Assembly (NCBI GenBank): GCA_947184155.2
Contig: CAMXCT020002702.1
Coordinates: 153,966 to 217,965 of the forward strand
Direction of reading: 5' to 3'
Source of the DNA: Cladocopium goreaui
Taxonomy: Eukaryota > Sar > Dinophyceae > Suessiales > Symbiodiniaceae
Length of the DNA: 64,000 nucleotides
The first letter of the stretch is position 1, and the number at the start of each line of letters is the position of its first letter. Below the pieces are notes generated by a model that was not told the origin of the DNA, did no database searches, and was given only the letters and a program-made list of their open reading frames with translations. Made by a program: the position numbers and the translations under genes. This document shows, one piece after another, positions 12,672 through 48,573 of the stretch.

Positions 12672-12680
12672 CCCCCTTTC
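12672..12680 (-). promoter_or_regulatory. Polypurine tract of copy 1
   Basis: On the sense strand GAAAGGGGG abuts the first base of the 3' LTR. This is the expected primer site for plus-strand DNA synthesis. Copy 2 has the same tract at 43956-43964. Confidence 0.75.
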
Positions 12681-15905: not shown

Positions 15906-16295
15906 TCAGATGATCTGGTGAGCCTCCGTGGAAAACTTGTATAACAAGTTTCCGTACTGGTCAAACTCTACGGATTTCATCGTTCCCTGCCAACGGTATT
16001 CGTTGGGCTTATATTTTAAGAGAACTCCCGCCTCGGCTTTCTGGAGATAGCCAATGGCGGTCACCTCGACCTCGACCAGAACATAGTCTTTGGCACAAAA
16101 CTCACCCTTTGGACCTTCCGGTGTCCAGTCGTTGAAGTACTGAGCACGCTCGACGGCAGCAACCGGGTCTTTTCGTAGTCCAAACCTCTTGGAATATTCG
16201 TCAGGCTGAATCTCCTTCCCATTGTTCAAGTCCTCAAACTGCTTAGGAGTCAACGCCAACCAAAGACGAATAGATTCCATTGCCGTTGATGCCAT
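15906..16295 (-). CDS. 129-aa conserved protein of the LTR element, copy 1
   Basis: Function unknown. A compact mixed alpha/beta protein: MASTAMESIRLWLALTPKQF, then DEYSKRFGLRKDPVAAVERA, YFNDWTPEGPKG, DYVLVEVEVTAIGYLQKAE and KSVEFDQYGNLLYKFSTEAH. No signal peptide, membrane segment or Cys/His cluster. The copy at 35188-35577 differs at 11 nucleotides by my alignment; ten are synonymous third-position changes and one gives Ala/Ser. This is strong evidence for selection on the protein. The start Met is conserved and the upstream frame is closed. It lies between the leader region and the 401-aa ORF. Confidence 0.8.
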   Translation of the reverse strand: MASTAMESIRLWLALTPKQFEDLNNGKEIQPDEYSKRFGLRKDPVAAVERAQYFNDWTPEGPKGEFCAKDYVLVEVEVTAIGYLQKAEAGVLLKYKPNEYRWQGTMKSVEFDQYGNLLYKFSTEAHQII

Positions 16296-19810: not shown

Positions 19811-21058
19811 TGTAGAAAAAGCGCCTTGCGCAGATCTGCGGTCAGATCCAACGCTCCTTCCAAAATTCCTACGGAACTACGCAGGCGGACGCGTACGTCA
19901 ACCACGCACACCAAACACAAGCGCAGCGCGTAAGTCCCTAAACTAATTAAACTAAAGCAATACCGTGTCAAAAGAGATGTTTCTTCCTCGACTCCCACAT
20001 GCTGACGTCAAGCTCCTTCTTTTCGCTCCAGACGCAACACGATCAGTCAAAGAGAAACACAAACACAACAAACACACGAGAAACAAAAGAACAAACAAGG
20101 GAAGATGTTCGTGTTCCTCTTTGTCGGTCTGTCTTATGTCAAGTTATGTGACACAGCAGCTTCTGTTCATTAAATGAACTTCTGACACCAGTCCTTCGAG
20201 CCGATGTCTCAACTGGTAAACTCGATTCCAGGTTTCCAGTTAACAAACCTCAAGTTCTTCAAATAAAGGTTTGTTGAAACTATTCCAGCTGCTAGAAGTC
20301 TACAAAACTCAATTTCACCAGATGAATTCAAAATCATCGAAACACTTCCAAAAGTTCTCAGATCAAACTGGTTCTCATCCAAACGTGAATAACCAGCTCA
20401 CTAGTCATACGCTGACTAACTTCTCAAGAACGAAGTGATTCACACAAGGTGTCTGTACAACCTTCTTCTGGATACAAAGTATAGTCAGAACACAAAGTTC
20501 TTCCTCCAAATCAGTTTTCCACATAGAGATAGCATCTCACAGTTTTCAAGTTCAATGGAGAATAAAGTGTTCTATTCGACATTGTCAGTGTAGGTCAGCC
20601 AAATACAGTTGTATCGCTGAAGTCTTTCGACCACTGTAATAGCCAATCCACAATGTAGATCAAAGTCGTCTCAAAACAATTTCGTCCTCATAGAGATAAC
20701 CAAAGTCATTTCAGGAACGATAAAAGTACACCATAAGATCAAGTGTATGATCCATAGGCCACGATGACGATGATGTAGGTATTGTCCTCACAATATCGAA
20801 ACATCTCATCACAAAACTCTCAGACAAATAAGATGCCCAAATATGACCATTGTCCTCACAATGCCAATGCATCTCAAGGTCCAAGCTCCAAACATAATAG
20901 ATTCTCTCCATCAGATATTTCCAGCTAGCTTAAACTCTTCTCCAAGAGTTTCTAGCTTTGTCTCATCACTTGGAGAGAATGACCTTCTCAACGTCGAAGA
21001 CACAATAAACAATCCCAATGTCAAACCAATGTAGATACTTTCAGCTCAAGCAATAAGC
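19811..21058 (-). repeat. 5' LTR of copy 1, truncated
   Basis: Matches 11110-12357 with about eight differences, then stops at a junction (CAATAAGCT, then a T run). The first about 310 bp of the LTR in sense orientation are missing, so the 5' target duplication cannot be read. Confidence 0.88.
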
Positions 21059-24450: not shown

Positions 24451-24819
24451 CAAGAAACAAAGTGGGACGCAGAGAGAGAAAAAGCATGTATTAACACTTA
24501 CGCTCATGCCAGTGCGTCGCAAATCTGCTTGCAAAACCTCTGCGGGCAGCAGCAAAATTCTCCGATGGCTGACCCCACTTTTGGGTCCAAATCTGGATCC
24601 CAAAACGGGGCCCAAGCAAAGACCTAAAAGAAGGAATGAAAATGTGATCCAATTCTGGACCCCATTTTGGGGTCCATATTTGGACCCAAAAATGGGGTCA
24701 GCCATCGGAGAATTTCGCTGCTGCCCGCACATGTTGTGCAAGCAGATTTGCGACCCTGCAGCTTGAACATGTATGTCAACTCATACCTTTTTCTCTTTGT
24801 GCGTCCCAAGTCCGGTTGC
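24451..24819. repeat. 369-bp foldback between X1 and X2
   Basis: The two halves are inverse copies: GGGACGCAGAGAGAG at the left against GTGCGTCCC at the right, and CTCCGATGGCTGACCCCA against its inverse GGGGTCAGCCATCGGAG. Pairing continues outwards into the right end of X1 and the left end of X2, giving a palindrome of roughly 550 bp centred near 24635. No coding content. Confidence 0.85.
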
Positions 24820-29599: not shown

Positions 29600-30421
29600 A
29601 AGCCAGAAGGCTGAGAGGTGAATCTGAGAGTGACTCCGTTGAGTGTATTCAAGATAGTGGCGTTTGTCCGCTCGGAGGGTGTCATTCCAGCTATTCCCGA
29701 TGGCAAAGGAGACCGGTTTCTCTGCTTCACTTATTGCTGCCAAGCGACGTACGTCGTTGCATGCAGCCTCAAACGCAGCGATGTCAAGATCCGGTGCTCT
29801 TTTGCGTAATTTCCGATCTGGGAAGACTCGCTCTCGCACATGCTGTTGCCAAGTCTGTTCCGGCACATAGTAAGCTGGTCGTTGGAACAATACTCGGCTG
29901 GCAAGCTTAGCGCGATTGACTTCCCACTGAGTGAACATATGTTGATGTTGAACTTGTTGCTTGAGTTGCGCAGCATATTGGTGGAAACTTTTGGACGTGT
30001 GCCACAATCTCAAGAGGCTGTAATTGGATGGCCAGTCAAGCGGGCATGGCTGTCTGCTTCCACCTTTCAGGCGTAAGTCCTGTAGCAGATGGTACAATTA
30101 CTTCCAGGTTGACTCGGATGGGTCCAGTTGGTTGCAGGCCCACCATTGTGTAGGAGCGAGTTCTGAAAAGCAGTCAGCGGCCTGAAATTCCTCATCCAAA
30201 GCCAAGCTCAATCCTGGAGCATTCTTGTCAGTAAACTTAACCGCCTGCAAGACTTGATCAGCTACATATCTTTGCAGTCCCTCAAATGCTCGGTGGGGGC
30301 AAGAGAAGGAAACCTCCTGTGGGCTTGAGTGTTACCGCCAGCTTCTTCGAGAAAACAAGGTGCGATCTTGCTGGTCCAGCTCGCCGGAAACCACGCCAAT
30401 AGGGCGGTAGTACCACTAACC
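29600..30421 (-). pseudogene. Downstream part of the interrupted helicase gene
   Basis: Minus-strand coding sequence that continues the frame broken at 45547 once the LTR element and one TAACC are removed: HTGVDL joins to VSGTTALLAWFPASW. A frameshift near 30300 leads to RAFEGLQRYVADQVLQAVKF, then a stop at about 30100, then YHLLQDLRLKGGSRQPCPLD and EVNRAKLASRVLFQRPAYYV, ending near 29640 (SEAEKPVSFAIGN). Family unknown by itself; it is placed by the insertion geometry. Beyond 29600 the frame runs into low-complexity sequence. Confidence 0.6.
30417..30421. repeat. Left target-site duplication of LTR element copy 2
   Basis: TAACC directly precedes the LTR start TATGG. The same five bases follow the other LTR at 45542-45546. 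Five bases is usual for LTR retrotransposon integrases. Confidence 0.8.
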
Positions 30422-31986
30422 TATGGAAATTTGACATCCTGTGAGACGACCCTTTGGGTAAGGGTGAAGCGACATGCCATTCATCATTGGTTGTATAGAT
30501 TATGCACAGAGGATACGTGGAAGGTTACTGCAAGAAGTCATGGCAGATTGGTAGAGAACACTCTACTTATTGCGGAAAGAATCTTGGATGTGACCATCCT
30601 GTGTCACAATATTCTATTAGTCTTCGGACTTGTCATTTCGGACATCAGGATGATGTCATTGATCAGTGTTGACCAGTGATTGTGGTATATTGATCAGTTC
30701 TACATCTTATTCTGGATTCGACTTGAGTCTGGTACAGCTTATTGCTTGAGCTGAAAATACCTACATTGGTTTGGCATTGGAATTGTTTATTACGTCTTCG
30801 ACGTTGAGAAGGTCATTCTCTCCAAGTGATGAGAATACAGCTATAAACTCTTGGAGAAGAGTTTAAGCTAGCTGGAAATATCTGATGGAGAGAATCTATT
30901 ATGCTTTGAACTTGGATCTTGAGATGCATTGGCATTGTGAGGACAATGGCCATATTTGGGCATCTTATTTGTCTGATAGTTTTGTGATGAGATGTTTCGG
31001 TATTGTGAGGACAATACCTACATCATCGTCATCGTGGCCTATGGATCATACACTTGATCTTATGGTATGTCTTTTATCGTTCCTGAGATGACTTTGATTA
31101 TCTCTGTGAGGACGACATTGTTTTGGCACGACTTTGATCTACATTGTGGATTGGCTATTACAGTGGTCGAAAGACTTCAGCGATACAACTGTATTTGGCT
31201 GACCTACATTGACAATGTCGAATAGAACATTCTATTCTCCATTGAGCTTGGAAACTGTGAGATGCTATCTCTATGTGGAAGACTGATTTGGAGAAAGAAC
31301 TTTGTGTTCTGACTATACTTTGTATTCAGAAGAAGGTTGTACAGACACCTTGTGTGAATCACTTCGTTCTTGGGAAGTTAGTCACAAGTTTGACTAATGA
31401 GCTGGTTATTCACGTTTGGATGAGAACCAGTTTGATTTGAGAACTTTTGGAAGTGTTTCGATGATTTTGAATTCATCTAGTGAAATTGAGTTTTGTAGAC
31501 TCCTAGCGGCTGGAATAGTTTCAACAAACCTTTATTTGAAGAACTTGAGGTTTGTTAACTGGAAACCTGAAATCGAGTTTACCAGTTGAGACATCGGCTC
31601 GAAGGACTGGTGTCAGAAGTTCATTTAATGAACAAGAGCTGCTGTGTCACATAACTTGACATAAGACAGACCAACAGAGGGAACACTTCCCGCTTTGCGT
31701 TTTCTGTTGTGTTTTGTTTGTTTGTTTGTTGTGTTTGTGTTTCTCTTTGACTGATCGTGCTGCGTCTGGAGCGAAAAGAAGGAGCTTGACGTCAGTATGT
31801 GGGAGTCGTGGAAGAAACATTCCTTTTGACACGGTATTGCTTTAGTTTAATTAATTTAGGGACTTACGCGCTGCGCTTGTCTTTGGTGTGCGTGGTTGAC
31901 GTACGCGTCCGCCCGCGTAGTTCTGTAGGAATTTTGGAAGAAGCGTTGGATCTGACCGTGGATCTGTGCACGGCGCTTTTTCTACA
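30422..31986 (+). repeat. 5' LTR of copy 2 (1565 bp)
   Basis: Starts TATGGAAATTTGACATCC, ends CTTTTTCTACA. Contains two hairpins with a TGAGGA loop (30931-30950 and 30999-31018) and a third stem AACAAACCT/AGGTTTGTT (31523-31556). It should carry the Pol II promoter; I see no canonical TATA box that I would call. Confidence 0.92.
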
Positions 31987-31998
31987 TGGTAGCGGAGC
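31987..31998 (+). promoter_or_regulatory. Primer-binding site of copy 2
   Basis: TGGTAGCGGAGC begins at the first base after the 5' LTR. It fits a tRNA 3' end with CCA, close to initiator-Met. The bases that follow (TCTACGGAGCTACC) can fold back on the site (GGTAGC with GCTACC). Confidence 0.78.
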
Positions 31999-32527
31999 TC
32001 TACGGAGCTACCCACACCATTCTCCGCTGACCCTTGTTGCAGTGTACTAAGGACACCATCTAAGGTGAAGCTGAGATCGTTTGTATTGAGCTCCTGAATC
32101 TTCTGCAGGGATACGTGTTGAGCTTGTACTAAGGTTCTGAAGTGATCACTAGGTTGGTACATTGCGGATGTAAAGTCAAGGGCATCGAAGAGCTTGAGTA
32201 TTCTCGATTCAGATGAGACGTGTTTTTGTTTCACTTGTGTGGCATGTTGACTGTGAGGTCATTGGGTGAAGGTGACTTGTCAAGTGATTGCCAGAGATGA
32301 CATGTTTTGAAATGCTTAGGATATCTCGACAGGCTGAGGTTGGGAGTAAGTCCTGGAGACACAAGCAAGGTGTTTGGACAGTGAAGACTCCGACAACTTG
32401 CCTGGTGACGTTTGAGTGTGTAGAATGCTTGTAGAAATTGACCTGTTTGGAAAGTTTGAAACCACTGTACCCTATCTGGAACCGAGAAATTTGGGTATCA
32501 AGGAACTTTGCAATAGTTTTGCCTAAG

Positions 32528-32839
32528 ATGGATGCCAGAGATAGATCCAGAGATCGGAGGAGAGACAATGCTGTGTATGAGGCAGAGAATGAGCAACTCC
32601 TTGGCCGAATTATTGAGATAGAGAAGTTGCAAGGTGTCATAAGGTTGCTACAGACACAGATCGTACTCCTGGAATGGCTGATACCGCTATTGGAAGATGT
32701 GCGAATTAACCGAAGCAACTTGGATATCATCAGGATGTTGAAGGACAATCTCATGGGCTTGGAAATGGAGTTACAGCATCGATCCTGTGAAGTGCGAGGA
32801 CAGATACTTGCACGGTACCACAGAGCATTGGATGGATGA
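32528..32839 (+). CDS. Small helical protein (103 aa) of the LTR element, copy 2
   Basis: Homologue of the 96-aa protein of copy 1. Starts MDARDRSRDRRRDNAVYEAE, then LLGRIIEIEKLQGVIRLLQ, ILLEWLIPLLED-type core and RGQILARYHRALDG. The frame is open 90 bases upstream, but copy 1 places the start at the Met of MDxRD. Sequence identity to copy 1 is low compared with the flanking DNA. Helical throughout; possible oligomerisation protein. Function unknown. Confidence 0.7.
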   Translation: MDARDRSRDRRRDNAVYEAENEQLLGRIIEIEKLQGVIRLLQTQIVLLEWLIPLLEDVRINRSNLDIIRMLKDNLMGLEMELQHRSCEVRGQILARYHRALDG

Positions 32840-33301
32840 AATATCTCTGTACTCAACATTGTATGAGGCAATTTTGGCAATCATGGGCATAGGCGATGGA
32901 GTTCCTGACAAAAGTGGTAAGCGAGAGTAAAATAAGTATCAACGGCTGAGCTGCATGTGATGTTGTGTTGCAGTTGCGTTTCATGTGTGATTTGCGTTCT
33001 ATTGTATAAGAGGTTTTGTGACTTTGGCTAGAAAGAAAGAGAGAGAGAGAGAGTAGGAAACCAGGAAGCTTGGTGATTTTGGCCGAGAGTGAGAGAAAGT
33101 GCCTGGAGAATCACTAGAGAGCATTGGAAAGAGTTAGAAGGAAAGTGGGCTGTACGGCAGGGTGCTGCATAGGTCCATATTGAAAGTAAGAAAGAGTAAC
33201 ATCTCGACAGGTTGGTCAGGTTGTAGATGATTCTGGACGCACGGAGTGCACAGTGCGTGGTGCTACTGAGCCTGGCGTCATGCCTGGAGATGACAGTTTG
33301 A

Positions 33302-33615
33302 GTTAAGAAAGATTGGCATGAGAACCACGGAGGGTTGGTGACCAGGTTTAGTTGCCACAGAATTGAGAAAGATCGGCATGAGAACCCGGAATGGTCAGTA
33401 GCCTTGGTTTAGTTGCCACAGAGTTGAGAAAGATTGGCATGAGAACCCGGAATGGTCAGTAGCCTTGGTTTAGTTGCCACAGAGTTGAGAAAGATCGGCA
33501 TGAGAACCCGGAGGTTGGTGACCAGGTTTAGTTGCCATAGATTGGAAAACGTTGGCATGAGAACCACGGAGGGTCGAGTTTGCTTTGTCAGTGACCTTGG
33601 TTTAGTTGCCACATT
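33302..33615. repeat. 60-bp tandem repeat in copy 2, about 5 units
   Basis: Same unit as 17876-18305 in inverse orientation (TTTAGTTGCCACAGAGTTGA, GGCATGAGAACC). Fewer units than copy 1, so the array changes in length between copies. Confidence 0.85.
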
Positions 33616-34647
33616 TGCAATGTAATGCGTGAATAATTGAACACCTGAGGTTCAGTAGTGTGCAGGAGCAGTGGAGCTTGACGGATGTTTGCACTGACTG
33701 GTGACCTTGAGATTGAAGCCTGAAGCATTGTTGTTTGCCTGGCAGTGTAGGTACTAGAGTGCTGAGAGAGAGAGATAGGAACCGTCATGTCACTGGAGGC
33801 ACAGTGGAACTTGGTGTTGAGACTGTGAGTTGACAACGGAGTGAGCTGTGTTTGCCTGTTTGGGAAAGTTGGTTTGATTTGTCAGATGCATCAGGTAACC
33901 TAGGATGTAGTTTGAACTGCAGTTGTGAGTGCGTTTGATTGGGATATGTAGCGAGTCATTGGAAACGACCTGAACTGTGTAGGTAGTGGAAACTGTTTGA
34001 ACTGTATTTTGAAACGAAACAGGAAACTTTGTGAGTTTGTTTTTCATGTTTTTGACCGGAGTTTGAACAGTTTTGCAGTGTCGCAGGCAGGTCAGGTATG
34101 ACTTACGTCCTTTGGATTGGTGCAGTTGTGTGTGACACCTGGTACAGATGCAGAGAGGGTCCAATATGCCTGAGGCAGGTAAGTACTCTGAAGTTGTTGT
34201 CAGACTGACTGGACTTTATGTGAAGACAACTTGAATGTAAGTATTCCCTTTTGGCTTAGAGCAATCATACCGTACCTCTCTAGATGGATGGACGAGCATG
34301 GAGGTTTCTGCAAGCCAAGTTTGGCTGTGAGACGAGCTCTATGGTCTTTATAGCAATGGTTGCCAGTGTAGTTTGCCTACGATGGTTGTGGCATTTCCTT
34401 TGGTAGAGATGTAGTTTGAGAGCAAGATGCTTGTGATGTTGTTCGACTCCGGAAAGGTTTCCTTTGCGAACCTGGGTCATGTTGAGTGGACATCTTGTAC
34501 TACCAGAAGGCTGGCATGGAGTTCTGCGAGATCTACAGCACTGGAGCTTTGCAGAGGATCCTGAGAGGAAGTAAAGCGGTAGTATAGTTTGTGCGTTTGC
34601 GTGTTGCTCAGAGTGAAAAGCAAGAGAGGGAATCTGGGATTTGAGAT

Positions 34648-34851
34648 TTGCAATTTTCTTTTGAGTTGAAGAGTTTTGACTTACAACAGAAAAGAAAAGA
34701 AATGGGCTGGATGGCAGAGGCGCTGCATAGGTCCATAGGGAACTGGACGGCAGGGGCGATTACGACTTGCATAGGTTCCAAAAGGAAAAGAAAAGTTGTA
34801 GAAAGTCAAAACGTGGACCAGATTGCAAGACGTTGCAAGGTTCACACATGA
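34648..34851 (+). CDS. 67-codon basic ORF, identical in both LTR copies
   Basis: Begins MQFSFELKSFDLQQKRKEMG and has a basic patch (GSKRKRKVVESQNV). It is identical in protein and DNA to 16836-16633, so coding cannot be separated from conservation of the RNA or DNA. It overlaps the first 42-bp motif. Confidence 0.25.
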   Translation: MQFSFELKSFDLQQKRKEMGWMAEALHRSIGNWTAGAITTCIGSKRKRKVVESQNVDQIARRCKVHT

Positions 34852-35187
34852 GCTAGATTGCAGACGTGCATAGGCTCAGAGAACAGATTTAAGTAGAAGA
34901 GAAAGAGACGTAGGGAACTGGACGGCAGGGGCGATTACGACTTGCATAGGTTCCGAAACGTGAGACTGACTGAAATGAATGTAAATGTGCTGTCAGTTTG
35001 TAGCTCGACATACTGTCTAAGTGAGAGACGAAGTATGGAGCTGTCTATTATGCTGGACTTGACGTGACATTTTGTCTGGACTTCTCATGTCTGTGTAGGT
35101 TTCATTCCACCGTTGCTGTTTACTATAAGACAACTTTGGCTCAGTGTTTTTGCATTTCAGCTGCCCTCGTAATAGCTTTGAGATAGT

Positions 35188-35577
35188 ATGGCATCAACGG
35201 CAATGGAATCCATTCGTCTTTGGTTGGCATTGACTCCTAAGCAGTTTGAGGACTTGAACAATGGCAAGGAGATTCAGCCTGACGAATATTCCAAGAGATT
35301 TGGACTACGAAAAGACCCGGTTGCTGCCGTCGAGCGTGCTCAGTACTTTAACGACTGGACACCGGAAGGTCCAAAGGGTGAGTTTTGTGCCAAAGACTAT
35401 GTTCTGGTCGAGGTCGAGGTGACCGCCATCGGCTATCTTCAGAAAGCCGAGTCGGGAGTTCTCTTGAAATATAAGCCCAACGAATACCGTTGGCAGGGAA
35501 CAATGAAATCCGTAGAGTTCGACCAGTACGGAAACTTGTTATACAAGTTTTCCACGGAGGCTCACCAGATCATCTGA
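35188..35577 (+). CDS. 129-aa conserved protein of the LTR element, copy 2
   Basis: Same protein as 15906-16295 apart from one Ser for Ala at about residue 90. Ten of eleven base differences are silent, so the protein is under constraint in both lineages. It is preceded by a leader and followed by about 600 bp of non-coding sequence into which the nested retroelement inserted. Function unknown; a role in the element's cycle is inferred only from selection and position. Confidence 0.82.
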   Translation: MASTAMESIRLWLALTPKQFEDLNNGKEIQPDEYSKRFGLRKDPVAAVERAQYFNDWTPEGPKGEFCAKDYVLVEVEVTAIGYLQKAESGVLLKYKPNEYRWQGTMKSVEFDQYGNLLYKFSTEAHQII

Positions 35578-36185
35578 GCACAGAGGAAATATCCTCTCTA
35601 GGTATAAGTTTTTTTGTAATGGCTCCAGGTCGGGTGGTAGTGCTAGGCTTGGAAGCCGACGATAGCTGCGGGGAGAAATGCAAAAGCTGTGGTGAAAGAG
35701 CTGTCAAGCTGAGATTGGAGTGAGATGACAATTTTTGGATGTCTTGGAATTTCAGAATTTTGGACGATTTCGGACTGGACGGAACTTGGACTTGTGGAAC
35801 TCAGTTTGTGTGATTTTCTGTCAGCTGTCACGAGTTTTGCATGAGTTTTCATTTTTGCTGCATGACATGTCTATGGGTTTTGTGCGCAGAAACCACTGTG
35901 ATCTGTTTTGCAGTTTTGTGAAGAGTTGTGCCAATGCATGCAGACAGTTGGATTTGGATTGAGCTTGCGGTTTACCACAAGTTTGCACTATTTTTGTTTT
36001 GGTCTGAGACATTGGAGTTTGATCGATCACATATTACCTGTCAAGATGTGCGGCACGCATCTTGGGGTAGTATTGAGTGTGATCTTTGTCGGAAGTGCAA
36101 TTCATCTGTTAAGGTGTGAGTCACGCACCTTAGGATGAGCAAGAGAGAGTTGGTGCTTGGCATGGCATGAAGTGGCTGATTTGTG

Positions 36186-36614
36186 CACGTCCTCTTTGGC
36201 ACAAAGATGATTGCATTATTGTTGGGGTCAATGGTGTTTTGCATGGTAATGCAAAACATGTGGATCTGCTGCGTCTGTTGGGTTTGATCCAAGGGTTCTA
36301 AAAACCTGAATGTCAAATTGAACAGTTATTTTAATGTACTGTATGTACAACCTACCTTGTGGTCCGTCCTTCAAAAGGCTGATCTCCATAGGCGGTGAAC
36401 CTTTTGTTGAAACATGATTACAACAACCATTCCAAGGTCACCTGCCTTTTTTCTCTGTTCAATTTTTCCTGGTTAAAAAAAATCAACCTTGTTTTTATCA
36501 AACCTGGTTGTTGTTTGTTTTGTCAAACACCTGACAAACTATGCAAACAAACACGTTGATTTCCATTGACACACGAGATCAATTTTTATATCTCGCCTTT
36601 CTGTCAAGTGGGCT
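36186..36614 (+). repeat. Split direct repeat A1
   Basis: Starts CACGTCCTCTTTGGCACA, ends TTTCTGTCAAGTGGGCT. Matches A2 with essentially one extra A in A2. Forms the left terminus of the element. Confidence 0.92.
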
Positions 36615-36972
36615 GATGCATGATCAAAGAGTGAACGTACACCTGATCGCATTGCCTCGCGTTGCCCCGGGGGTCAATGGTGGAAACCCAAAGGGAAACA
36701 AAAGAGAGGCAGACCATGGGGGTTGGAACAAGCCACAACCATTGGATAGACCACGCACTGGAGACAAAGAACCAGCCAAAGTTCCTGAAGAGCTCAAGGG
36801 CCCGAAACTCAGAACGTCGGAAAGAAAACCTATGTGCTGGCATCACAAATTGAGCAAGGGTTGCAACAATCCCACAAAAAATGGCAGGTGCAAGTTTGGA
36901 TACCACACATGCATGAAATGTTTGCGTCTGAAGCATGGTGCAGCAGCTTGCCACGCCAATGGGACTTCGTGA
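36615..36972 (+). pseudogene. Gag C-terminal part with Cys/His finger
   Basis: The frame is open from within A1 but Gag-like sequence starts after it. It ends in a finger KPMCWHHKLSKGC ... GRCKFGYHTCMKCLRL, matching the finger at the end of the gag at 60794-62014. The N-terminal two thirds of Gag are missing. The stop is TGA followed by CCA; the methyltransferase frame continues in phase directly after it. Confidence 0.7.
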
Positions 36973-37916
36973 CCAAAGATCGAGACCACCATGACAGTGC
37001 CTTGCAGTGGTGGCTTGGAGACGACATCAGGCGCCAGTTTTGTGGATGCATGTGAAGAGGCCGTTTTGAGCCCTGAAGTTTTGCCGAAATTTGTCGGACT
37101 GCAATCAACAGAAACATGTTGGCTTAGTGGTCGAAATTTTTCTGGAACTTGCAGACCCAGCAAAGCCTGTCGGAAGTATGGGCTACGTGCGTTGCCAGTT
37201 GACAAAGACCTTAAAAGGGCAGAACACTGTGCGGTCGCAAACTATGACCTGACGGACCCAGAGCGATATGCAACGTTGGTCACGGTGTTGTAGGCTGAAA
37301 AAGGACATGTTGGTGCACGCCCACTGTGCGCCTACCTGCGGTACTGCCTCGCGTGCAAGAGGCAGCAAGGTGGCAGGCATTCCGTTACACAAACAACCAC
37401 AACCTCTCCGTAGTGATGACCACCCAGACGGTCTCCCAAATCTTGGTGACGCTGAGCGCAATCGACTTGATAGTGCAAACAGGTCTTACAAGGCCACAGC
37501 GAGCTTGCTCTTGATGGGATAAGTCGTCTAGGCTCTGGTCGTTTAACCCTCTCAAGCCGAACGAGAACATGCTTGCGTCTCTGGCCGTGCGATGGTGGAA
37601 ACCTACGGTCCAGAATGGGACAACTTTTACATGCAGTTTCAGAGTTTGGGCATTACGCAACAACAGTCATACCTCTCAATTGTGACAATTCGCAATCCAT
37701 GTTCTCTGAACTGCCTAAAGGTGCAAAGAACACATCCCGAGTTGTGCAGCGGGGTTTTTCCAGGGATGCTTTGAGAGCCGCGTTTGGAAATCAAGTGCTC
37801 ATACATCAAGATCTTTGTCATGGACAAGACTTTGAACGAATCACGGTTGGGGTGCCGAGGGACCCAATCGAGTTCATGAAAGAGGCCCAAAACGCAGGTC
37901 ACCCTAGAGGGCATTA
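36973..37916 (+). pseudogene. C5-methyltransferase-like domain and linker of Pol
   Basis: In phase with gag after one TGA. Motif I-like FSGTCRPSKACRKYGLR, then LPVDKDLKRAEHCAVANYD, then (after a frameshift near 37290) HCAPTCGTASRARGS with the motif IV Cys, PLRSDDHPDGLPNLGD, and a TAA at about 37520 that truncates the region before motif VI. The linker IEFMKEAQNAGHPRGH is still readable near 37870. Several frame breaks make it non-functional. Confidence 0.65.
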
Positions 37917-38099
37917 GCAATAAAGGCAAACCTTGAATTGGAGGAGCATGAACTCTTTGCACACAGAGCTCAAGTTTTCAAAGGTTGACTACAGAAGGCG
38001 GCCGAACTAAGGCAAGCAGAAACTAAACTCCATGCTGGACTCCCACAGCACTTGCGACAAATTCTTGCAAGGAAGAAGCTCTACTCTGGAAACATCTGC

Positions 38100-39745
38100 T
38101 TGTCAGCTTAGATTACGGTGATGCAAAAATCGTCGATGAAATCATTTCTGGTTTTTCCTTGACGGGATGGGAGAGTGAGAGTGGTGTGTTTAACAAAAAA
38201 AGTCAGACCTGCGGGCATGACTGTGGAGCAGCTGCAGGGAGTTGCGTTGGGCCTCAATGCTGCGGTGGTGGGAAGCTTGAAACAAGGCCAGTGGACAGAT
38301 TTGGACGCCAGTGCTTTGGCTGAGACTGAGATCGAAGTAGACAAAGGCTGGTTATCCCAGTGCAACAAGTTGACATGAAGAACCACTTCGTGGCAAAGCG
38401 TCTTTTTGCCATCCAACAAAAGGGCAAGATGCGTCTAATAGACGATTCTTCTGCTTGTGGCGTAAATGCCACGGTGGGCCTTCCAGAAAAGCTGCGAGTG
38501 GAGTCGGTGGGCCAGGTGGTGGCCATTATTCCCTCCATGATGCGCTTCAGGCAGACCTTGAGCAGGCTTCCATGGACGGGACGGACTTTTGACTTGAAAG
38601 CTGCGTACAAGCAATTTGGGGTGAGCTTGGATGAATCGAACAGACTAAAGATTGCAATAAAGTCTGGCCAGAGTGATGTGAGCTTCTACAACTTCTTAGC
38701 CTTTCCTTTGGAGCAACCGGAAGTGTTGTGGCGTTCTTGAGGATAGCTGCTGCGCTGTCCTTCATAGGGACCCGTGGCTTGCTGATTTGCTGGTCGATCT
38801 TCTTCGACGACTTTACGGCGGTTGCTCCTGAGAAAGTCGCCGGAAACACGCAGCTTTATATAGAGTTCTTGTTCCGACTCCTTGGGGTGAATTTTTCTGC
38901 CGAGGGCGACAAGGCCCCACCTTTTGCACCTCTTTCAAATCGCCTGGAATGCAGTTTGACTTGGACAGAATTGGACGAGGTTCTGTTTCTCTTAGTCATA
39001 CGGCTGCAAGGAGAGGCGAGCTGCTGGAGCACATAGGCAACATGCTCTATGTGGATGGACCAGGTGCTGGCCCAAAAGAGCTGGAAAGACTACATGGAAG
39101 GTTGGTTTGGTTTAACTCTTTTGTCTTTGGCCGTACTTTGAAGGCAGCTGTGAGTGTTGCCTCTTAGTAGGCAAGGGCCAGCGCTCCGAAAGTCGGCGTT
39201 GCAGGGCCACTCAAAGATGCGCTTGTCATTTTGCAAGAAGAACTGGCCAAGGACGAACCCGTCACAATCAACAGTGCTACAACAAAGACTTGGACAATAT
39301 AAGCGGATGGTGCTTTCGAACCAGATGGTGAGATAAGAGCTTCAGTGGGGGCTGTGCTGTCAACCCGGATGGTCTAGTAGTGGAGCGCTTCGGTTTGAAG
39401 CTGCCTGACAGTTTGACGTCTAAATTTGAGAAGGACAGTAAGCACCCAGTATATGAGCTCGAAATCTTCCCCATCTTGCTGGCCTTGCGTGTTTGGCAAA
39501 GGCACTTTCTCAACGCCCAAATAGTATTCTATCTGGTTAACGATGCGGCTCGGAGTCGAATGATCAGAGCTGAAGGGTCAACTAGACTTACACAGAGCCT
39601 GATCTCTGAGTTCGTAAAGCTTGAGAAACAACTAAGAGTTTTCCTTGGTTCGCCAGGGTTCCTACTGCCGGCAACCCAGCAGATGATGCCTAGAGGCCTA
39701 ACTTCAACGCCCCATGGTTGGTTGGAGTACCCAGGCCTGAACTAG
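38100..39745 (+). pseudogene. Reverse transcriptase and RNase H, decayed
   Basis: RT motifs across three frames: KMRLIDDSSACGVNATVG, GRTFDLKAAYKQFGVSLDE, FYNFLAFP, then FFDDFTAVAPEKVAG, where FDD takes the place of the YxDD box (catalytic Asp pair kept), then LLGVNFSAEGDKAPP. An RNase H-like region follows: DGAFEPDGEIRASVGAVL, YELEIFPILLALRVWQRHFL, and a typical tail (NPADDA). Frameshifts lie near 38350, 38710, 38950 and 39290. It is the polymerase of the split-repeat element. No integrase or recombinase follows before B1. Confidence 0.72.
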
Positions 39746-39769
39746 TGTTGCCAGCTCAGTTTTGTCAGT

Positions 39770-40250
39770 CGGGGAATGTAAGGAGCTGCAACCATACTGC
39801 GGCGGTCAAAAACCTTTTCCAGTCTTGGAGAAAAAATTTGAATGCCAATTTGACTGGAATCGTATCCAGAAGCCTGGCACCTTCTTTCTCCTTCGAAGTC
39901 GGATGTACACTCCGATTGATGAACTTCCCCCGTGTGACTTGAGAATTTTTCTGGCGACAAAAAAGGACCGCAGTGAATCCATGCACTGTTGCTTGTTATC
40001 GAGTTGCATGTCCTTTTTTGTGGTGCTGTATTTTGTGACCTCGTTTATTTTTTGTGACCTCGTTTTTTGTGGTTTCTTTTACTGCGAGTTTCACGGAGGT
40101 CAGAATATATGTCAGCACGACGTATCGCGTACGCGTGGTTTATATGTTTACTCTTGTTCCTCGCGTATTGCGTTTCAACTCTCCGGTTTTTGTCTCCCTT
40201 TTCTCAAACCCTTTTATGCAGTTCCACTGTCCATTGGCCCCAAAAATAAG
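39770..40250 (+). repeat. Split direct repeat B1
   Basis: Starts GGGGAATGTAAGGAGCTGCA, ends CCCCAAAAATAAG. Near-identical to B2. The B1/A2 junction AATAAG|CACGTCC joins the right and left element ends, as in a circular intermediate. Confidence 0.92.
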
Positions 40251-40680
40251 CACGTCCTCTTTGGCACAAAGATGATTGCATTATTGTTGGGGTCAATGGT
40301 GTTTTGCATGGTAATGCAAAACATGTGGATCTGCTGCGTCTGTTGGGTTTGATCCAAGGGTTCTAAAAACCTGAATGTCAAATTGAACAGTTATTTTAAT
40401 GTACTGTATGTACAACCTACCTTGTGGTCCGTCCTTCAAAAGGCTGATCTCCATAGGCGGTGAACCTTTTGTTGAAACATGATTACAACAACCATTCCAA
40501 GGTCACCTGCCTTTTTTCTCTGTTCAATTTTTCCTGGTTAAAAAAAAATCAACCTTGTTTTTATCAAACCTGGTTGTTGTTTGTTTTGTCAAACACCTGA
40601 CAAACTATGCAAACAAACACGTTGATTTCCATTGACACACGAGATCAATTTTTATATCTCGCCTTTCTGTCAAGTGGGCT
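40251..40680 (+). repeat. Split direct repeat A2
   Basis: Copy of A1 placed directly after B1. Followed by 86 bp of unique sequence before B2, which contains two inverse-like phrases (AAAATACCCACTCC and CCCACCCAAAACC). Confidence 0.92.
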
Positions 40681-40766
40681 AAAATACCCACTCCAAAACA
40701 CAGGGAATCTTTCCTTTTCGTTTACCCACCCAAAACCTGGGAAATCCATGTTTTCTCCCACCCTGG

Positions 40767-41246
40767 GGGGAATGTAAGGAGCTGCAACCATACTGCGGCG
40801 GTCAAAAACCTTTTCCAGTCTTGGAGAAAAAAATTGAATGCCAATTTGACTGGAATCGTATCCAGAAGCCTGGCACCTTCTTTCTCCTTCGAAGTCGGAT
40901 GTACACTCCGATTGATGAACTTCCCCCGTGTGACTGAGAATTTTTCTGGCGACAAAAAAAGGACCGCAGTGAATCCATGCACTGTTGCTTGTTATCGAGT
41001 TGCATGTCCTTTTTTGTGGTGCTGTATTTTGTGACCTCGTTTATTTTTTGTGACCTCGTTTTTTGTGGTTTCTTTTACTGCGAGTTTCACGGAGGTCAGA
41101 ATATATGTCAGCACGACGTATCGCGTACGCGTGGTTTATATGTTTACTCTTGTTCCTCGCGTATTGCGTTTCAACTCTCCGGTTTTTGTCTCCCTTTTCT
41201 CAAACCCTTTTATGCAGTTCCACTGTCCATTGGCCCCAAAAATAAG
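40767..41246 (+). repeat. Split direct repeat B2
   Basis: Copy of B1 forming the right terminus; ends AATAAG and is followed directly by LTR-element sequence (ATCTGCATGG). Confidence 0.92.
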
Positions 41247-41281
41247 ATCTGCATGGTCATTATAGGGATTGTCAAGTTGAA

Positions 41282-42504
41282 TTGCAGATTATGCCCAAGC
41301 TGTATTTGGGCCCCGGCTTATCCCAGCGGGTGCATCAGGCCTTGTCTAGGAGACTCGAGCAATTCATGGCAGCGAACGTTGCCGGTTCCGTAACTCCAGC
41401 AGCCCCAGCAGCTCCATCGACGTGTCTGAGAATCCAGCGCTATCGGCGCCAGCGTTACCGGCGCAGACAGGAGTGACTGAGACGGATTCCGAGAAAGAGA
41501 AAGATCAGGATACTGTCTATGTGGATGGAGAAGAGAAGGAAGAGAAGGAAGAGAAGGAAGAAGGAGATGCTGGAAGATATGATGACAGATCGAGATCTCC
41601 GAGGTTGAGAAGGCATCATGAGTCCTTTGACCCCAATGAGGCGGCTGACTTGTTGAGTTCTACCACAGGCTTGGCTGTGGGAATCACGTCCATGGTCGCT
41701 GCGTTGAAAGGATCGACGGACAAACTTGAGATCCTGATTAAGAGCACCCATACTCTGCAGTCTGACCTTTGCAGATCCCTGGAAGCCGTTGGAGAAGCCG
41801 TCACCAACATGGCTCGTGCATCTGAGTCCCTTGCTGCGGGGGTGAATCACAACACCAGCAGGGTTGGTGCAATGGTAGGTGAACTTACCAAGCTCAAGAA
41901 GCATGTTGAGTGGTCGCTTGACGCTTCGATGAAGGACACACTCAGAGACAACAAGAAAGGGCGCCTGGAAAGGGATCAGTCGTTACAAGACATCATGTCT
42001 CAACTCCAGGAGAGCATGGATAAACTCCAGGAGAACCTCAAGCTAGTGGCAGAAAGAATCGAAAGGGCAACGCCACCGGCAGAAATCAGGGGAACGCCAC
42101 CGGCAGAAATTCCCCCGGCGTATGACCCGCCATTGGCACCTATGGATCCGCCATTGGCTCCTATGACTCCAGCCATGGCACCAGCTGGACCCGGCACAAG
42201 TGTTCCACCGCCTCCGGCGATTCCGCCAAGGCCGGCAATTCCAGCACCACCAACATTGCAGACGGTGCGATTTGCAGGGTATAGCCCGGCGCGGATGGGC
42301 GAAGTTCCGATGAGCTATCCCCTGGGTTTGGAGGTTAAGGACATGAAGTCGCCACCTACTCAGGTGATCGAGGAGGTCACGGGACGTGTCAGAGCTGTTT
42401 CACCCACACCACGTCACGATCCTCTGACGGGGACCGCAGCGTTCTCCCCTCTGGGGTATATGCAGATTCAGGGGACGCGGGAATACCGCAGGGTGTACCC
42501 CTGA
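41282..42504 (+). pseudogene. Coiled-coil/proline-rich ORF of the LTR element, copy 2 (frameshifted)
   Basis: Homologue of the 401-aa protein. The conserved start (MQIMPKLYLGPGLSQR) is at 41282, but a 19-base deletion near 41420 shifts the frame, so the original start gives only 64 residues. From the Met at 41422 a 360-residue frame is open to the conserved C-terminus (GTREYRRVYP, 42504). It keeps the helical core and TPPAE repeats, with a longer Glu/Lys run (EEKEEKEEKEE). It may be expressed from the inner start, or be dead at full length. Confidence 0.7.
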
Positions 42505-43485
42505 TATCTATCCCTGAGCAGAGTGCCAAAGGCACTGGAATTCGCCTGGTTTAACGACAAGAGAATAGTTGATTTTATCAGCTCGAGGTTCACTTGTTGT
42601 TTTCAGAAATGACGGCATGGCTGAGCGCAGGCATCGGATTTGAGTTTAAAAGGGGGTGAGACACACCGAGTGACGCAGTAGATATGGTTTTGTCTGCATA
42701 TTTTTGGTTTTGGTTTGAAGTTCGTTTCGCTGTCATATGTCTCTCAATGACGATAGCGAGAGCAACGTTCTTGAAGGCATTCAGAACTCGGAGTTGCTAG
42801 CAGATCTGAGGGAGACATCATGAAGAAAAGTTGAAGTTGTTCTTGATTGGCTTGATTGCGATATTTCTCATGTTTGAGTTGTTGTGTACATGACTTGCGT
42901 TTTGTTTCTTGAGACATGGAACTTGATGTTGTGAGTGTTTTTACAAACATTTGGTATAATTGTGTTGTCATGGCACATGATGAGAACCTGGGAAGAAACT
43001 CGGACGGAATCTGAGTCTAAGTAATGGAAAAATCTTCCAGGGGAATCTGATGCCATGATTGTAGACACATTGCACTTTCATGTCATGATATAGACTCAAA
43101 CAAGACATATCACACCTCCGAGATCTTTAGGATGGATCAGACGTTGAAAGGGGGACGGCGATCTATGCGATGATGAAGCTGTGAGAGATGTTTTGCTAAA
43201 ATGTCCCTCACCGCTTCCTCATTCCGTGCCAATCTTAGCTAGTCCTGACCCTGACGGAGAGAGAGTCTCATTCAGAACATTTTGAATTTGTTGTGCAGTG
43301 ACTGTGAACTGTACTTCACTTGCTCTGAATTTGAGATGAGTTGCATGAGTGATATTACTTCACTTGCGTTTTCTTTTCATACGCCTACCTTCTACACGGA
43401 GGTGCGGATTAGCTGAAACAGTTGGCCTTTGGTTTTCGTGTTGACTCCGATCATGCGGCGTTAGGTTTCGTCTTGGGTCTCGTGT
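42505..43485 (+). other. 3' internal region of copy 2 without genes
   Basis: Corresponds to 14056-13080 in copy 1. No sense ORF of note; ends in a GT-rich run (43480-43530). Confidence 0.5.
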
Positions 43486-43734
43486 GTGTGTGTGTTTGTT
43501 TTGTTTTGTTCTGTTGTTGCTGTTTTGTTTGTTGTAGGAAGACAACAGCACTGTAGATATATCGGTATCGACGCCATGGTTTATCCGAGGAACTGGATTT
43601 TGGAAGACGAGCTTAGTACTGGAAAGACTTTAGGAGTCTTTGGACTGAGTCTGGTATTCCAACATCTGGCTTTCGCAACAGAGAAGATTTTGAATTTGGA
43701 AGCTACGACATTATGCATGAGTCGAACAAGATGA
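43486..43734 (+). CDS. Small hydrophobic ORF of the LTR element, copy 2
   Basis: 82 codons, homologous to 12852-13079. A hydrophobic segment is followed by MVYPRNWILEDELSTGK. The first third is driven by the GT-rich run and may not be coding; the part from MVYPRNW (43576) looks more protein-like. Just upstream of the polypurine tract. Confidence 0.35.
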   Translation: MCVFVLFCSVVAVLFVVGRQQHCRYIGIDAMVYPRNWILEDELSTGKTLGVFGLSLVFQHLAFATEKILNLEATTLCMSRTR

Positions 43735-43955
43735 GTTTTGGATGATGCTTTATCATCTACCGTGAGTTTTGGAAGTACACGTACTTCTGTTGCAACTTCT
43801 TTGGATATTTTGGTCATGAATGTGACCTGAACCGTGAACGTACTTCTGTGGATATCTTTTGATCATGGATATGATCTGGAACGTGAACATTTTTCCTGTG
43901 GATATTCGAGTGGTATCCATATCTGGAAGCGAGTGAGTGGATGAGATGTCATGTC

Positions 43956-43964
43956 GAAAGGGGG
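43956..43964 (+). promoter_or_regulatory. Polypurine tract of copy 2
   Basis: GAAAGGGGG directly before the LTR start TATGG. Confidence 0.75.
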
Positions 43965-45541
43965 TATGGAAATTTGACATCCTGTGAGACCACCCTTTGG
44001 GTAAGGGTGAAGCGACATGCCATTCATCATTGGTTGTATAGATTATGCACAGAGGATATGTGGAAGGTGACTGCAAGAAGTCATGGCAGATTGGTAGAGA
44101 ACACTCTACTTATTGCGGAAAGAATCTTGGATGTGACCATCCTGTGTCACAATATTCTATTAGTCTTCGGACTTGTCATTTCGGACATCAGGATGATGTC
44201 ATTGATCAGTGTTGACCAGTGATTGTGGTATATTGATCAGTTCTACATCTTATTCTGGATTCGACTTGAGTCTGGTACAGCTTATTGCTTGAGCTGAAAA
44301 TACCTACATTGGTTTGGCATTGGAATTGTTTATTACGTCTTCGACGTTGAGAAGGTCATTCTCTCCAAGTGATGAGAATACAGCTATAAACTCTTGGAGA
44401 AGAGTTTAAGCTAGCTGGAAATATCTGATGGAGAGAATCTATTATGCTTTGAACTTGGATCTTGAGATGCATTGGCATTGTGAGGACAATGGCCATATTT
44501 GGGCATCTTATTTGTCTGATAGTTTTGTGATGAGATGTTTCGGTATTGTGAGGACAATACCTACATCATCGTCATCGTGGCCTATGGATCATACACTTGA
44601 TCTTATGGTATGTCTTTTATCGTTCCTGAGATGACTTTGATTATCTCTGTGAGGACGACATTGTTTTGGCACGACTTTGATCTACATTGTGGATTGGCTA
44701 TTACAGTGGTCGAAAGACTTCAGCGATACAACTGTATTTGGCTGACCTACATTGACAATGTCGAATAGAACATTCTATTCTCCATTGAGCTTGGAAACTG
44801 TGAGATGCTATCTCTATGTGGAAGACTGATTTGGAGAAAGAACTTTGTGTTCTGACTATACTTTGTATTCAGAAGAAGGTTGTACAGACACCTTGTGTGA
44901 ATCACTTCGTTCTTGGGAAGTTAGTCACAAGTTTGACTAATGAGCTGGTTATTCACGTTTGGATGAGAACCAGTTTGATTTGAGAACTTTTGGAAGTGTT
45001 TCGATGATTTTGAATTCATCTAGTGAAATTGAGTTTTGTAGACTCCTAGCAGCTGGAATAGTTTCAACAAACCTTTATTTGAAGAACTTGAGGTTTGTTA
45101 ACTGGAAACCTGAAATCGAGTTTACCAGTTGAGACATCGGCTCGAAGGACTGGTGTCAGAAGTTCATTTAATGAACAAGAGCTGCTGTGTCACATAACTT
45201 GACATAAGACAGACCAACAGAGGGAACACTTCCGGGAACACTTCCCGCTTTGCGTTTTCTGTTGTGTTTTGTTTGTTTGTTTGTTGTGTTTGTGTTTCTC
45301 TTTGACTGATCGTGCTGCGTCTGGAGCGAAAAGAAGGAGCTTGACGTCAGTATGTGGGAGTCGTGGAAGAAACATTCCTTTTGACACGGTATTGCTTTAG
45401 TTTAATTAATTTAGGGACTTACGCGCTGCGCTTGTGTTTGGTGTGCGTGGTTGACGTACGCGTCCGCCCGCGTAGTTCTGTAGGAATTTTGGAAGAAGCG
45501 TTGGATCTGACCGTGGATCTGTGCACGGCGCTTTTTCTACA
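43965..45541 (+). repeat. 3' LTR of copy 2 (1577 bp)
   Basis: Matches the 5' LTR (30422-31986) except for about five substitutions and one extra short unit near 45230 (GGAACACTTCC repeated). Followed by TAACC at 45542. Confidence 0.92.
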
Positions 45542-45546
45542 TAACC

Positions 45547-47954: not shown

Positions 47955-48573
47955 GTTTCACGGCGGTAGTTTCTCACCACTTTGTTGTGACCCGGCGTTG
48001 TCGGTGTTTGCTTCAAAGTGTCAGGGTGAATGTCATGCCATGATGGCTGCTCTTTGTGATCTCGGGGATCCTGGCTGGGGGGATCCCTGGTTTCCGCATT
48101 GAGCTTTTTTGCTTGCACCCTCGGAGTGGCCCTTTGTGATTTTGTTGGTGGTTTGGTTGTTGTTTGTTTTATTTATGGGCCGGCGAACATGACACATAAG
48201 CTGTCATCTGCATGTGCCGAGACGATACTAAGCTATCACAACTCGCTTCAACAGAACTGTTTCACCCATAAACTGGAACCCGTCACGTCACTGTTGTGCG
48301 TTTGTGTGGTTGTTTGTTTTTTGTGTGGGTCGTTGTTTTGTTTTTTGTTTGGGTTTGTTTTTGGCGTGTTTTTTGCTTTCTGTTCTTTGTGCTTCGGTTT
48401 TTGCTCTCGAATGTGACAAGGGATTTGGACTATGTATCGGTCCTTTACCAGTTTACTTTTGCGGCCATTACAGCTTCGGCCCCTGCACGAGTCAATTAAT
48501 TAATCTCATTTGCAACATGCTTGGAAACATGTTGAACGACCTGGCGGAAGCCATACGGCGTTGGACGGAAAAA
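47955..48573. mobile_element. Insertion of about 620 bp with 20-bp target duplication
   Basis: Flanked by ATAAATGCAAGCCAGACTTT at 47935-47954 and 48574-48593. The inside is T/G-rich on plus (TTTGTTTTTTGTGTGGGTCG near 48318), holds a GGGATCC-type palindrome near 48065 and no recognisable ORF. The long target duplication suggests a LINE-type or LINE-mobilised insertion. Precise excision brings VWLAF and MDESQ into one frame, which supports the boundary. Confidence 0.7.

What the first reader, a model, noticed from the sequence alone, without database searches (positions are those of the whole stretch)
30422..45541. LTR retroelement family with three unfamiliar ORFs and no gag-pol, present twice
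Two 10-kb elements (11110-21058 minus; 30422-45541 plus) have textbook LTR signals: 1.56-kb LTRs, a primer site right after the 5' LTR, a polypurine tract right before the 3' LTR, and TAACC flanking copy 2. The interior encodes a small helical protein, a 129-aa protein and a 360-401 aa coiled-coil/proline-rich protein, none of which I can place, and no RT, RNase H, protease or integrase. Non-autonomous LTR elements (LARDs, TRIMs) normally carry no conserved genes. An LTR element that keeps its own non-Gag-Pol genes under selection while borrowing RT would be new.
Basis: partly seen in the sequence, partly recalled or inferred. Interest (0 to 1): 0.92.

Follow-up and report, generated by a model that had tools for sequence, protein, structure and literature searches.

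The report
Polymerase-less retrotransposon keeping three genes
A jumping DNA element in what is probably a dinoflagellate genome shows no copying enzymes of its own, yet keeps three selected genes of unknown kind and appears to be copied by a partner element with matching ends; that would make it a retrotransposon counterpart of a satellite virus.

Summary
Two copies of an LTR retrotransposon lie in the window (copy 1, minus, 11110-21058; copy 2, plus, 30422-45541). Copy 2 is longer because a 5.06-kb DIRS-like element sits inside it (36185-41246); copy 1 has a truncated 5' LTR. The three proteins match no Pfam family above cut-off but have 111, 83 and 125 database relatives (ORF1, 2, 3; E up to 1) and evolve under purifying selection (median dN/dS 0.12 for ORF3; 0-0.26 for ORF2). 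In the same genome the layout LTR-PBS-ORF1-ORF2-ORF3-PPT-LTR recurs at fixed spacing, without gag-pol in the copies read. A sister family has the same three genes in another order. A Ty1/copia family in the genome (zinc knuckle, RVT_2) shares the 12-nt primer site, the polypurine tract, the first nine LTR bases and the 5-bp target duplication, so it is the likely helper. ORF2 is predicted to have an ADP-ribosyltransferase-like fold (moderate support). Best reading: a non-autonomous LTR lineage, mobilised in trans by a copia helper, that keeps its own non-Gag-Pol genes, beyond LARD, TRIM or TR-GAG as described. What the three proteins do, and the borrowing itself, are inferred, not shown.

The parts
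30417..30421 (+). target-site duplication TAACC, left of copy 2
30422..31986 (+). 5' LTR of copy 2 (TATGGAAA...TTTCTACA)
31987..31998 (+). primer-binding site TGGTAGCGGAGC, identical over these 12 nt in the sister family and the copia family
32528..32839 (+). ORF1, 103 aa, divergent allele (41% aa identity to ORF1 of copy 1)
35188..35577 (+). ORF2, 129 aa, predicted ADP-ribosyltransferase-like fold
36185..41246 (+). nested DIRS-like element with split direct repeats (A1 36185-36614, B1 39771-40250, A2 40250-40680, B2 40767-41246); not part of the LTR element
41291..42504 (+). ORF3 of copy 2, broken by a frame change (41291-41476, then 41350-42504)
43957..43964 (+). polypurine tract AAAGGGGG
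43965..45541 (+). 3' LTR of copy 2
45542..45546 (+). target-site duplication TAACC, right of copy 2
11110..12671 (-). 3' LTR of copy 1
12672..12679 (-). polypurine tract of copy 1
14057..15253 (-). ORF3 of copy 1, 398 aa, open throughout: long predicted helix (119-261), DRSRSPR motif, proline-rich part, conserved C-terminus
15906..16295 (-). ORF2 of copy 1, 129 aa
18768..19058 (-). ORF1 of copy 1, 96 aa
19799..19810 (-). primer-binding site of copy 1
19811..21058 (-). 5' LTR of copy 1, truncated at 21058

Best explanation
This is a non-autonomous LTR retrotransposon lineage with its own small gene set. SHOWN: LTRs, a primer site, a polypurine tract, 4-5-bp target duplications, many copies, three ORFs under purifying selection, no gag-pol in the five canonical relatives aligned, standard spacing in most others measured, and a Ty1/copia family in the same genome that shares the primer site, the polypurine tract, the LTR start and the duplication length. 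INFERRED: the LTR transcript is packaged, reverse transcribed from the same tRNA primer and integrated by the Gag-Pol of that copia family or a close relative, acting in trans, because the helper recognises the shared ends. The three proteins keep being selected because each copy's success depends on them, most likely acting on their own RNA (in cis). My favoured model, weakly held: ORF3 (predicted long helix, RS-like motif, proline-rich) and ORF1 form the ribonucleoprotein that oligomerises the RNA and hands it to the helper's Gag, while ORF2, an ADP-ribosyltransferase-like fold apparently without the usual catalytic histidine, binds RNA, a nucleotide or a host factor. ORF1 is a cassette that has been exchanged between families, as template switching between co-packaged RNAs would do.
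For: TSDs TAACC, GGCAT, GCAAG (5 bp) and CCAC (4 bp) in the 4 copies where both ends were read, of 5 tried; L039's 5' end was not found by the motif. Copies: the ORF3 search scored 104 of 5,505 candidates and gave 105 rows, 2 with a stop inside and one place split by a frame change. Five of six relatives fetched align to copy 1 from LTR to LTR (one with a truncated 3' LTR), the sixth has DIRS-like sequence upstream of ORF2. No pol family in copy 1: ORF1-3 and the four longest other frames (126-164 aa) have no Pfam match above cut-off. Spacing. Selection: ORF3, 28 of 30 loci, 378 pairs, 366 with 15 or more substitutions, median dN/dS 0.116, range 0.012-0.29 for those with dS above 0.03; ORF2, 9 copies, 36 pairs, 0-0.26, 32 of them at or below 0.10; ORF1 within an allele class 0.08-0.40. 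Relatives from independent environmental sources. Sister family L051: LTRs 98% identical, TSD CTTGC, same PPT, order ORF2-ORF1-ORF3. Helper: L050 with zf-CCHC and RVT_2; junction AAAAGGGGG|TATGGAAATATACAC at 80+62 places, control 0+0; LTR 819 bp with matching first bases; TSDs TACAT, ATTTG, GTTTG in 3 of 4 copies tried; same primer site behind other LTR ends at 934+814 places, control 1+1.
Confidence: 0.8

Rival explanations
1. ORF3 is a highly diverged Gag, so the element is a TR-GAG type (LTR element with gag only) that packages its own RNA and borrows only Pol.
For: ORF3 is the largest ORF, with predicted long helix, RS-like and proline-rich parts; TR_GAG is listed among the known non-autonomous classes.
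Against: No Pfam Gag or zinc knuckle in ORF3; its profile does not hit the copia locus, whose first ORF carries a zinc knuckle; the confident part of the model is one long helix (low overall confidence); it leaves ORF1 and ORF2 unexplained.
Confidence: 0.2
2. The three genes are captured host genes kept because they protect the element from host silencing or defence (counter-defence), not for packaging.
For: An ADP-ribosyltransferase-like fold is typical of host-conflict proteins (recalled); retrotransposons of Symbiodinium have captured DNA methyltransferases (PMC5890265, passages).
Against: No host homologue was found or tested: the search for the host's own Tpt1 (PF01885) did not complete. 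Three genes kept together in two families with shuffled order fits a core replication set equally well.
Confidence: 0.3
3. An autonomous element with the same three genes plus gag-pol exists and the copies seen are internal deletions of it (LARD-like).
For: Five of 31 primer-site-to-ORF3 distances are 4-9 kb longer.
Against: The two that were opened hold a DIRS-like element (10 of 13.4 kb read) and a 3.9-kb insert with an apparent 9-bp duplication and no long ORF; 26 of 31 are standard. In the one sister copy read, the three genes are likewise the recognisable ones; its other frames were not searched for pol families.
Confidence: 0.07
4. The ORFs are decayed fragments of a known Gag-Pol or chance frames in non-coding sequence.
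For: The non-coding parts of copies 1 and 2 are also mostly 89-100% identical outside indel-rich windows, so identity alone proves nothing.
Against: Codon-level selection; relatives down to 35% (ORF3) and 56% (ORF2) identity in the databases; no copia match.
Confidence: 0.02

Closest known systems
LARD (large retrotransposon derivatives)
   Same: Non-autonomous, longer than 4 kb, with LTRs; such elements can parasitise other LTR elements' machinery (PMC6696364, passages).
   Different: LARD interiors are non-coding (recalled; the review's figure legend draws single lines as non-coding); here three genes are kept under purifying selection.
TR-GAG elements
   Same: LTR element with coding capacity but no pol; the class is named in PMC6696364 (passages), its definition is recalled.
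   Different: No recognisable Gag here; three unrelated genes instead.
Non-autonomous endogenous pararetroviruses of grasses with an autonomous partner
   Same: Partnership through shared non-coding regulatory sequences, with recombination (PMC5491270, abstract and outline).
   Different: Those are structurally defective viruses; this lineage has a gene set not found in the helper locus that was read.
Symbiodinium DIRS and LINE elements with captured DNA methyltransferases
   Same: Same kind of host, if the host guess is right; retroelement keeping an extra gene (PMC5890265, passages). The nested element in copy 2 has the A-coding-B-A-B repeat plan described there.
   Different: Those keep their own reverse transcriptase.
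TARE1 of tomato
   Same: LTRs starting with TA (PMC3701649, search listing).
   Different: Described there as a mutated copia-like element; no such gene set is mentioned in the listing.
Satellite viruses and helper-dependent transforming retroviruses (recalled)
   Same: Own genes, replication by a helper.
   Different: Here a genome-resident retrotransposon, with genes apparently maintained over long evolution rather than recently captured.

Membership tests
LTR retrotransposon | paired LTRs, primer site after the 5' LTR, polypurine tract before the 3' LTR | tested here: met
LTR retrotransposon | short fixed target-site duplication | tested here: met
   5 bp in 3 and 4 bp in 1 of 4 readable copies, 5 tried
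Autonomous LTR retrotransposon | own RT and integrase between the LTRs | tested here: not met
   no pol family in ORF1-3 or the four longest other frames of copy 1; five relatives align to copy 1 without extra sequence of pol size; spacing; the RT-like sequence in copy 2 lies in the nested element
LARD | non-coding interior (recalled) | tested here: not met
   three ORFs with dN/dS well below 1
TR-GAG | a recognisable gag domain | tested here: not met
   no Pfam Gag or zinc knuckle in ORF1-3; a Gag beyond profile detection is not excluded
Ty1/copia (membership of the element itself) | copia RT phylogeny | not testable with these tools
   no RT was found in the element
Helper relationship with the copia family L050 | shared primer site, polypurine tract, LTR start and TSD length | tested here: met
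   12/12 primer site, AAAGGGGG, TATGGAAAT 9/9, 5-bp TSDs; 3' LTR ends differ (TTTCTACA against TTTTCGCA); no other copia family compared
Helper relationship with the copia family L050 | trans mobilisation observed | not testable with these tools
   needs RNA, particles or new insertions
ADP-ribosyltransferase superfamily (ORF2) | fold | tested here: inconclusive
ADP-ribosyltransferase superfamily (ORF2) | sequence profile match | tested here: not met
   two weak Pfam names, neither an ART, among 32 members up to E 10; no ART chain in the PDB profile search
ADP-ribosyltransferase superfamily (ORF2) | catalytic histidine in the first strand | tested here: inconclusive
   the strand reads LW[LV]ALTP in the rows of A3 with an ordinary N-terminus, a few rows have other or missing N-termini; the equivalence to the ART His is recalled, no residue alignment was available

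The most novel reading that the evidence does not exclude
A satellite retroelement lineage: LTR elements that gave up, or never had, gag-pol, evolved or assembled their own conserved three-gene set (including an ADP-ribosyltransferase-like protein), exchange gene cassettes between families, and have persisted over long times as obligate clients of copia elements, as satellite viruses do with helper viruses.
Probability: 0.4. Interest if true: 0.9.

Novelty: new variant of a known kind. Interest (0 to 1): 0.8.

Why it matters
Non-autonomous LTR elements are usually thought of as coding-free parasites (recalled). Here the parasite carries genes that selection keeps, with a candidate helper in the same genome, so one can ask directly what a pol-less element needs to win helper machinery. 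It also ties three protein families that are common in the databases, but match no Pfam family, to a mobile element, and suggests an ADP-ribosyltransferase-like protein in an LTR element; the one literature search for that combination returned two papers, neither on the topic as far as title and start of abstract show.

Tried and rejected
Pfam, PDB and Rfam searches of the LTR element and its ORFs gave nothing above a family cut-off (weak names such as CENP-Q and SlyX for ORF3 are coiled-coil-type matches below cut-off). A viral-contig scan with the ORF2 profile found no relative. No tRNA gene in the window, so the primer tRNA was not identified (its 3' end should read GCTCCGCTACCA; initiator Met is a guess from recall). 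The ORF3 model is too poor for a fold search. A recalled spliced-leader motif was not found in the window (14-base exact pieces). BFVD matches for ORF2 have no E at or below 0.001. Own-genome searches with ORF2, PF00665, PF07727, PF01885, the sister's ORF3 and the sister's PPT did not complete. The PF00078 search was answered but its 150 scored places of 4,498 candidates were not used further. Dropped rows: L041's LTR-LTR figure (3' LTR truncated); L024 and L032 from the ORF3 set (start motif not found); L039 (52-aa frame) and L042 (none) from the ORF1 set, and the sister's broken ORF2 from the ORF2 set; one of 32 primer-site rows (17,214, a cross-pair on C766) and four of 42 PPT rows above 9.8 kb (C766 and C607 cross-pairs; C1424 and C602, whose usual-distance PPT was not in the list). 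In one search the loose ORF1 motif hit an ORF of the nested element in L045; ignored. An earlier count said 'ALL' for the ART rows and '97%' for the sister's ORF1; the report's figures (49 of 50 by recall; 90%) replace them. Literature: searches listed no dinoflagellate element of this kind by title and abstract start; most subscription papers and all preprints are not in that library.
Full report
OBSERVATION. The window lies at G000:C2702:153966-217965 of an unnamed 1.166-Gb assembly of 6,202 contigs. That the host is a dinoflagellate of the Symbiodinium kind is an inference from the genome size and from the nested element of the A-B-A-B plan described there (PMC5890265, passages); no call names the organism. 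Copy 2 has LTRs 30422-31986 and 43965-45541 and the duplication TAACC on both sides. It contains a nested element, 36185-41246, with split direct repeats and RT-like sequence by eye (no Pfam match for its 136-aa frame). Copy 1 lacks that insert, and its 5' LTR is cut at 21058.

THE GENES. ORF1 (96 or 103 aa), ORF2 (129 aa) and ORF3 (398 aa in copy 1; frame-broken in copy 2) were located exactly. None reaches a Pfam cut-off. Copy 1's interior has 28 frames of 80 aa or more overlapping it; besides ORF1-3 the four longest (126-164 aa) were searched and have no Pfam match at E 0.1, nor is there a pol family among six frames of copy 2's interior. Yet each of the three ORFs has many relatives in a 5.8-billion-protein collection at E up to 1: 83 for ORF2, 125 for ORF3, 120 of them listed, 111 for ORF1, one of them the window's own. 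Most are labelled only 'ena', but 10 of the 111 ORF1 rows and three of the 120 listed ORF3 rows have JGI among their sources, so the families are not confined to one assembly. Relatives go down to 35% identity for ORF3 and 56% for ORF2. A good number of rows lie on contigs of about 1 kb, which may be transcripts; that was not checked.

SELECTION. Identity between copies 1 and 2 is mostly 89-100% per 100-base window outside indel-rich stretches, non-coding parts included, so conservation alone means little. Codon analysis does: ORF3 in 28 of 30 loci, 378 pairs, 366 of them with 15 or more substitutions, median dN/dS 0.116, range 0.012-0.29 for those with dS above 0.03; ORF2 in 9 copies, 36 pairs, 0-0.26, 32 of them at or below 0.10. 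The 30 loci are the best-scoring ones and so are biased towards intact copies; the nine ORF2 copies were not chosen by ORF2. ORF1 is different: copies 1 and 2 carry alleles only 41% alike; the nucleotide identity in the ORF1 windows is 53-64% where it can be aligned without large gaps, while the nearest windows on either side climb to 88-93% and 86-99%. Within an allele class dN/dS is 0.08-0.40.

RELATIVES IN THE SAME GENOME. An ORF3 search scored 104 of 5,505 first-look candidates; of 105 rows two have a stop inside and one place is split by a frame change. Six places were fetched. L039, L040, L041, L043 and L044 align to copy 1 from LTR to LTR with no extra sequence of pol size (L039 has only a 52-aa ORF1 frame by the motif used, and the 3' LTR of L041 is truncated). 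L042 has DIRS-like sequence upstream of ORF2, and the element's 5' part was not found in a further 4 kb. The distance from primer site to ORF3 is 3.9-4.4 kb in 26 of 31 pairs, 8.53 kb in 2 and 12.1-13.4 kb in 3; 38 of 43 ORF3 places on the contigs covered by the PPT list have a PPT 1.33-1.46 kb behind them (the list holds the first 100 of 246 PPT places). Of the five long cases I opened two: C4879 holds a DIRS-like element that begins in ORF2's end (L045, 10 of 13.4 kb read); C97 holds a 3.9-kb insert with an apparent 9-bp duplication and no long ORF (L057). C766, C2614 and C607 were not opened. Nine of the 40 scored primer-site places (of 833 candidates) have no scored ORF3 within 20 kb, one being the window's own copy 2. 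Exact PPT|LTR junctions number 131+115, control 0+0. LTR pairs differ at 5 to 22 substitutions in the six elements where this was read, so the insertions are young relative to the divergence between copies.

SISTER FAMILY. A pattern for the same primer site behind another LTR end has 934+814 places, control 1+1; of the 100 listed, 51 end in CGCA, 42 in CACA, 7 otherwise. One CACA place was read, L051, and is a second family: LTRs of 1.62 kb, 98% identical, ends TGTGAAAG and TTTCACA, duplication CTTGC, polypurine tract GTCGAAAGGGGG as in ours; its LTR is about 70% like ours over some 430 columns. It carries homologues of all three genes (profile E 5.9e-36 and 1.8e-13 for two frames of a broken ORF2, 1.6e-52 for ORF1, 7.9e-17 for ORF3) in the order ORF2-ORF1-ORF3. 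Its other frames were not searched for pol families. Identities to ours are 90% for ORF1, 59% and 74% for the ORF2 pieces and 23% for ORF3. So ORF1 behaves as a cassette that has moved between families, and the three genes form a set that survives reordering.

CANDIDATE HELPER. One CGCA place was read, L050: a 1,747-aa frame with a zinc knuckle and a separate frame with RVT_2, the copia reverse transcriptase; Pfam recognised no integrase, protease or RNase H there. Its 3' LTR junction reads AAAAGGGGG|TATGGAAATATACACTCCTGTG against AAAGGGGG|TATGGAAATTTGACATCCTGTG in ours. The 24-base version occurs at 80+62 places, control 0+0. The LTR is 819 bp and otherwise unlike ours. Four further copies chosen by that junction gave 5-bp duplications TACAT, ATTTG and GTTTG in three; in the fourth the LTR start motif was not found. 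LTRs that begin TA are unusual (TARE1, PMC3701649, listing), which makes the shared start more telling; a shared primer site alone would not be. Other copia families of the genome were not compared, so uniqueness of the match is untested. No similarity of ORF1-3 to the copia locus was found.

MECHANISM. Shown: anatomy, integration signature, copy number, selection, absence of pol in the copies read, shared ends with a copia family. Inferred: trans replication, action of the proteins in cis, and any role of each protein. Selection on genes in a non-autonomous element is expected if a copy profits from its own proteins, hence the cis argument.

COMPARISON AND NOVELTY. Non-autonomous LTR classes named in a review are TRIM, LARD, TR_GAG and BARE-2 (PMC6696364, passages). 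A non-coding interior was tested and not met; a recognisable gag was tested and not found. Grass pararetroviruses give a precedent for helper partnership through shared regulatory sequences (PMC5491270, abstract and outline). Symbiodinium retroelements with captured genes are known, but keep their RT (PMC5890265, passages); accessory domains of LTR polyproteins are discussed in PMC6338049 (passages). A genomics review mentions LTR content and heat-activated copia elements in dinoflagellates (PMC11453091, passages). I found no description of this lineage in the listings, which cover open-licence PMC papers only. I rate it a new variant of a known kind; if the satellite reading is right it would deserve a category of its own.

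Noticed in passing
window 36185-41246; L042 5434-10000; L045 1550-10000: DIRS-like elements sit inside copies of the LTR element at two different sites (after ORF2 in copy 2, inside ORF2's end in L045) and upstream of ORF2 in L042; L042 and L045 show methyltransferase-like and RT-like frames by eye, but Pfam gave no hit.
   Followed up: partly
window 58377-64000: Frames that look by eye like a tyrosine recombinase, a zinc-finger gag and an RT, running off the window; Pfam up to E 1 gave only one weak Gag_FV_central match.
   Followed up: partly
window 21059-21070 and the copia 5' LTR at C80 (L052): Both truncated LTRs abut a similar GAGG-plus-A-run tail, as if LINE-type insertions had ended there.
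   Followed up: no
window 4600-6377: 46-bp tandem satellite in two blocks, 24 in-register reference positions.
   Followed up: no
window 21721-27496: About 3.1-kb tandem duplication with internal inverted repeats.
   Followed up: no
window 46224-47957, minus: 577-aa open frame that looks like a superfamily 1 helicase by eye; no Pfam family at E 0.01.
   Followed up: partly
L050 6814-7905 and the adjoining stretch up to the 3' LTR (L053, L056): The copia candidate helper carries further frames downstream of its RT (364 aa, which also spans the RT frame's end and a likely RNase H part, and 539 aa nearer the 3' LTR); the first has no Pfam family, neither matches ORF1-3.
   Followed up: partly
window 31987-32012; L051 from 503: The primer site lies in a possible hairpin (GGTAGC...GCTACC) in both pol-less families; not folded.
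   Followed up: no
G000:C766:182478-202502: Two element interiors appear to follow each other and share the LTR between them, judged from the places of primer sites, ORF3 and PPT.
   Followed up: no
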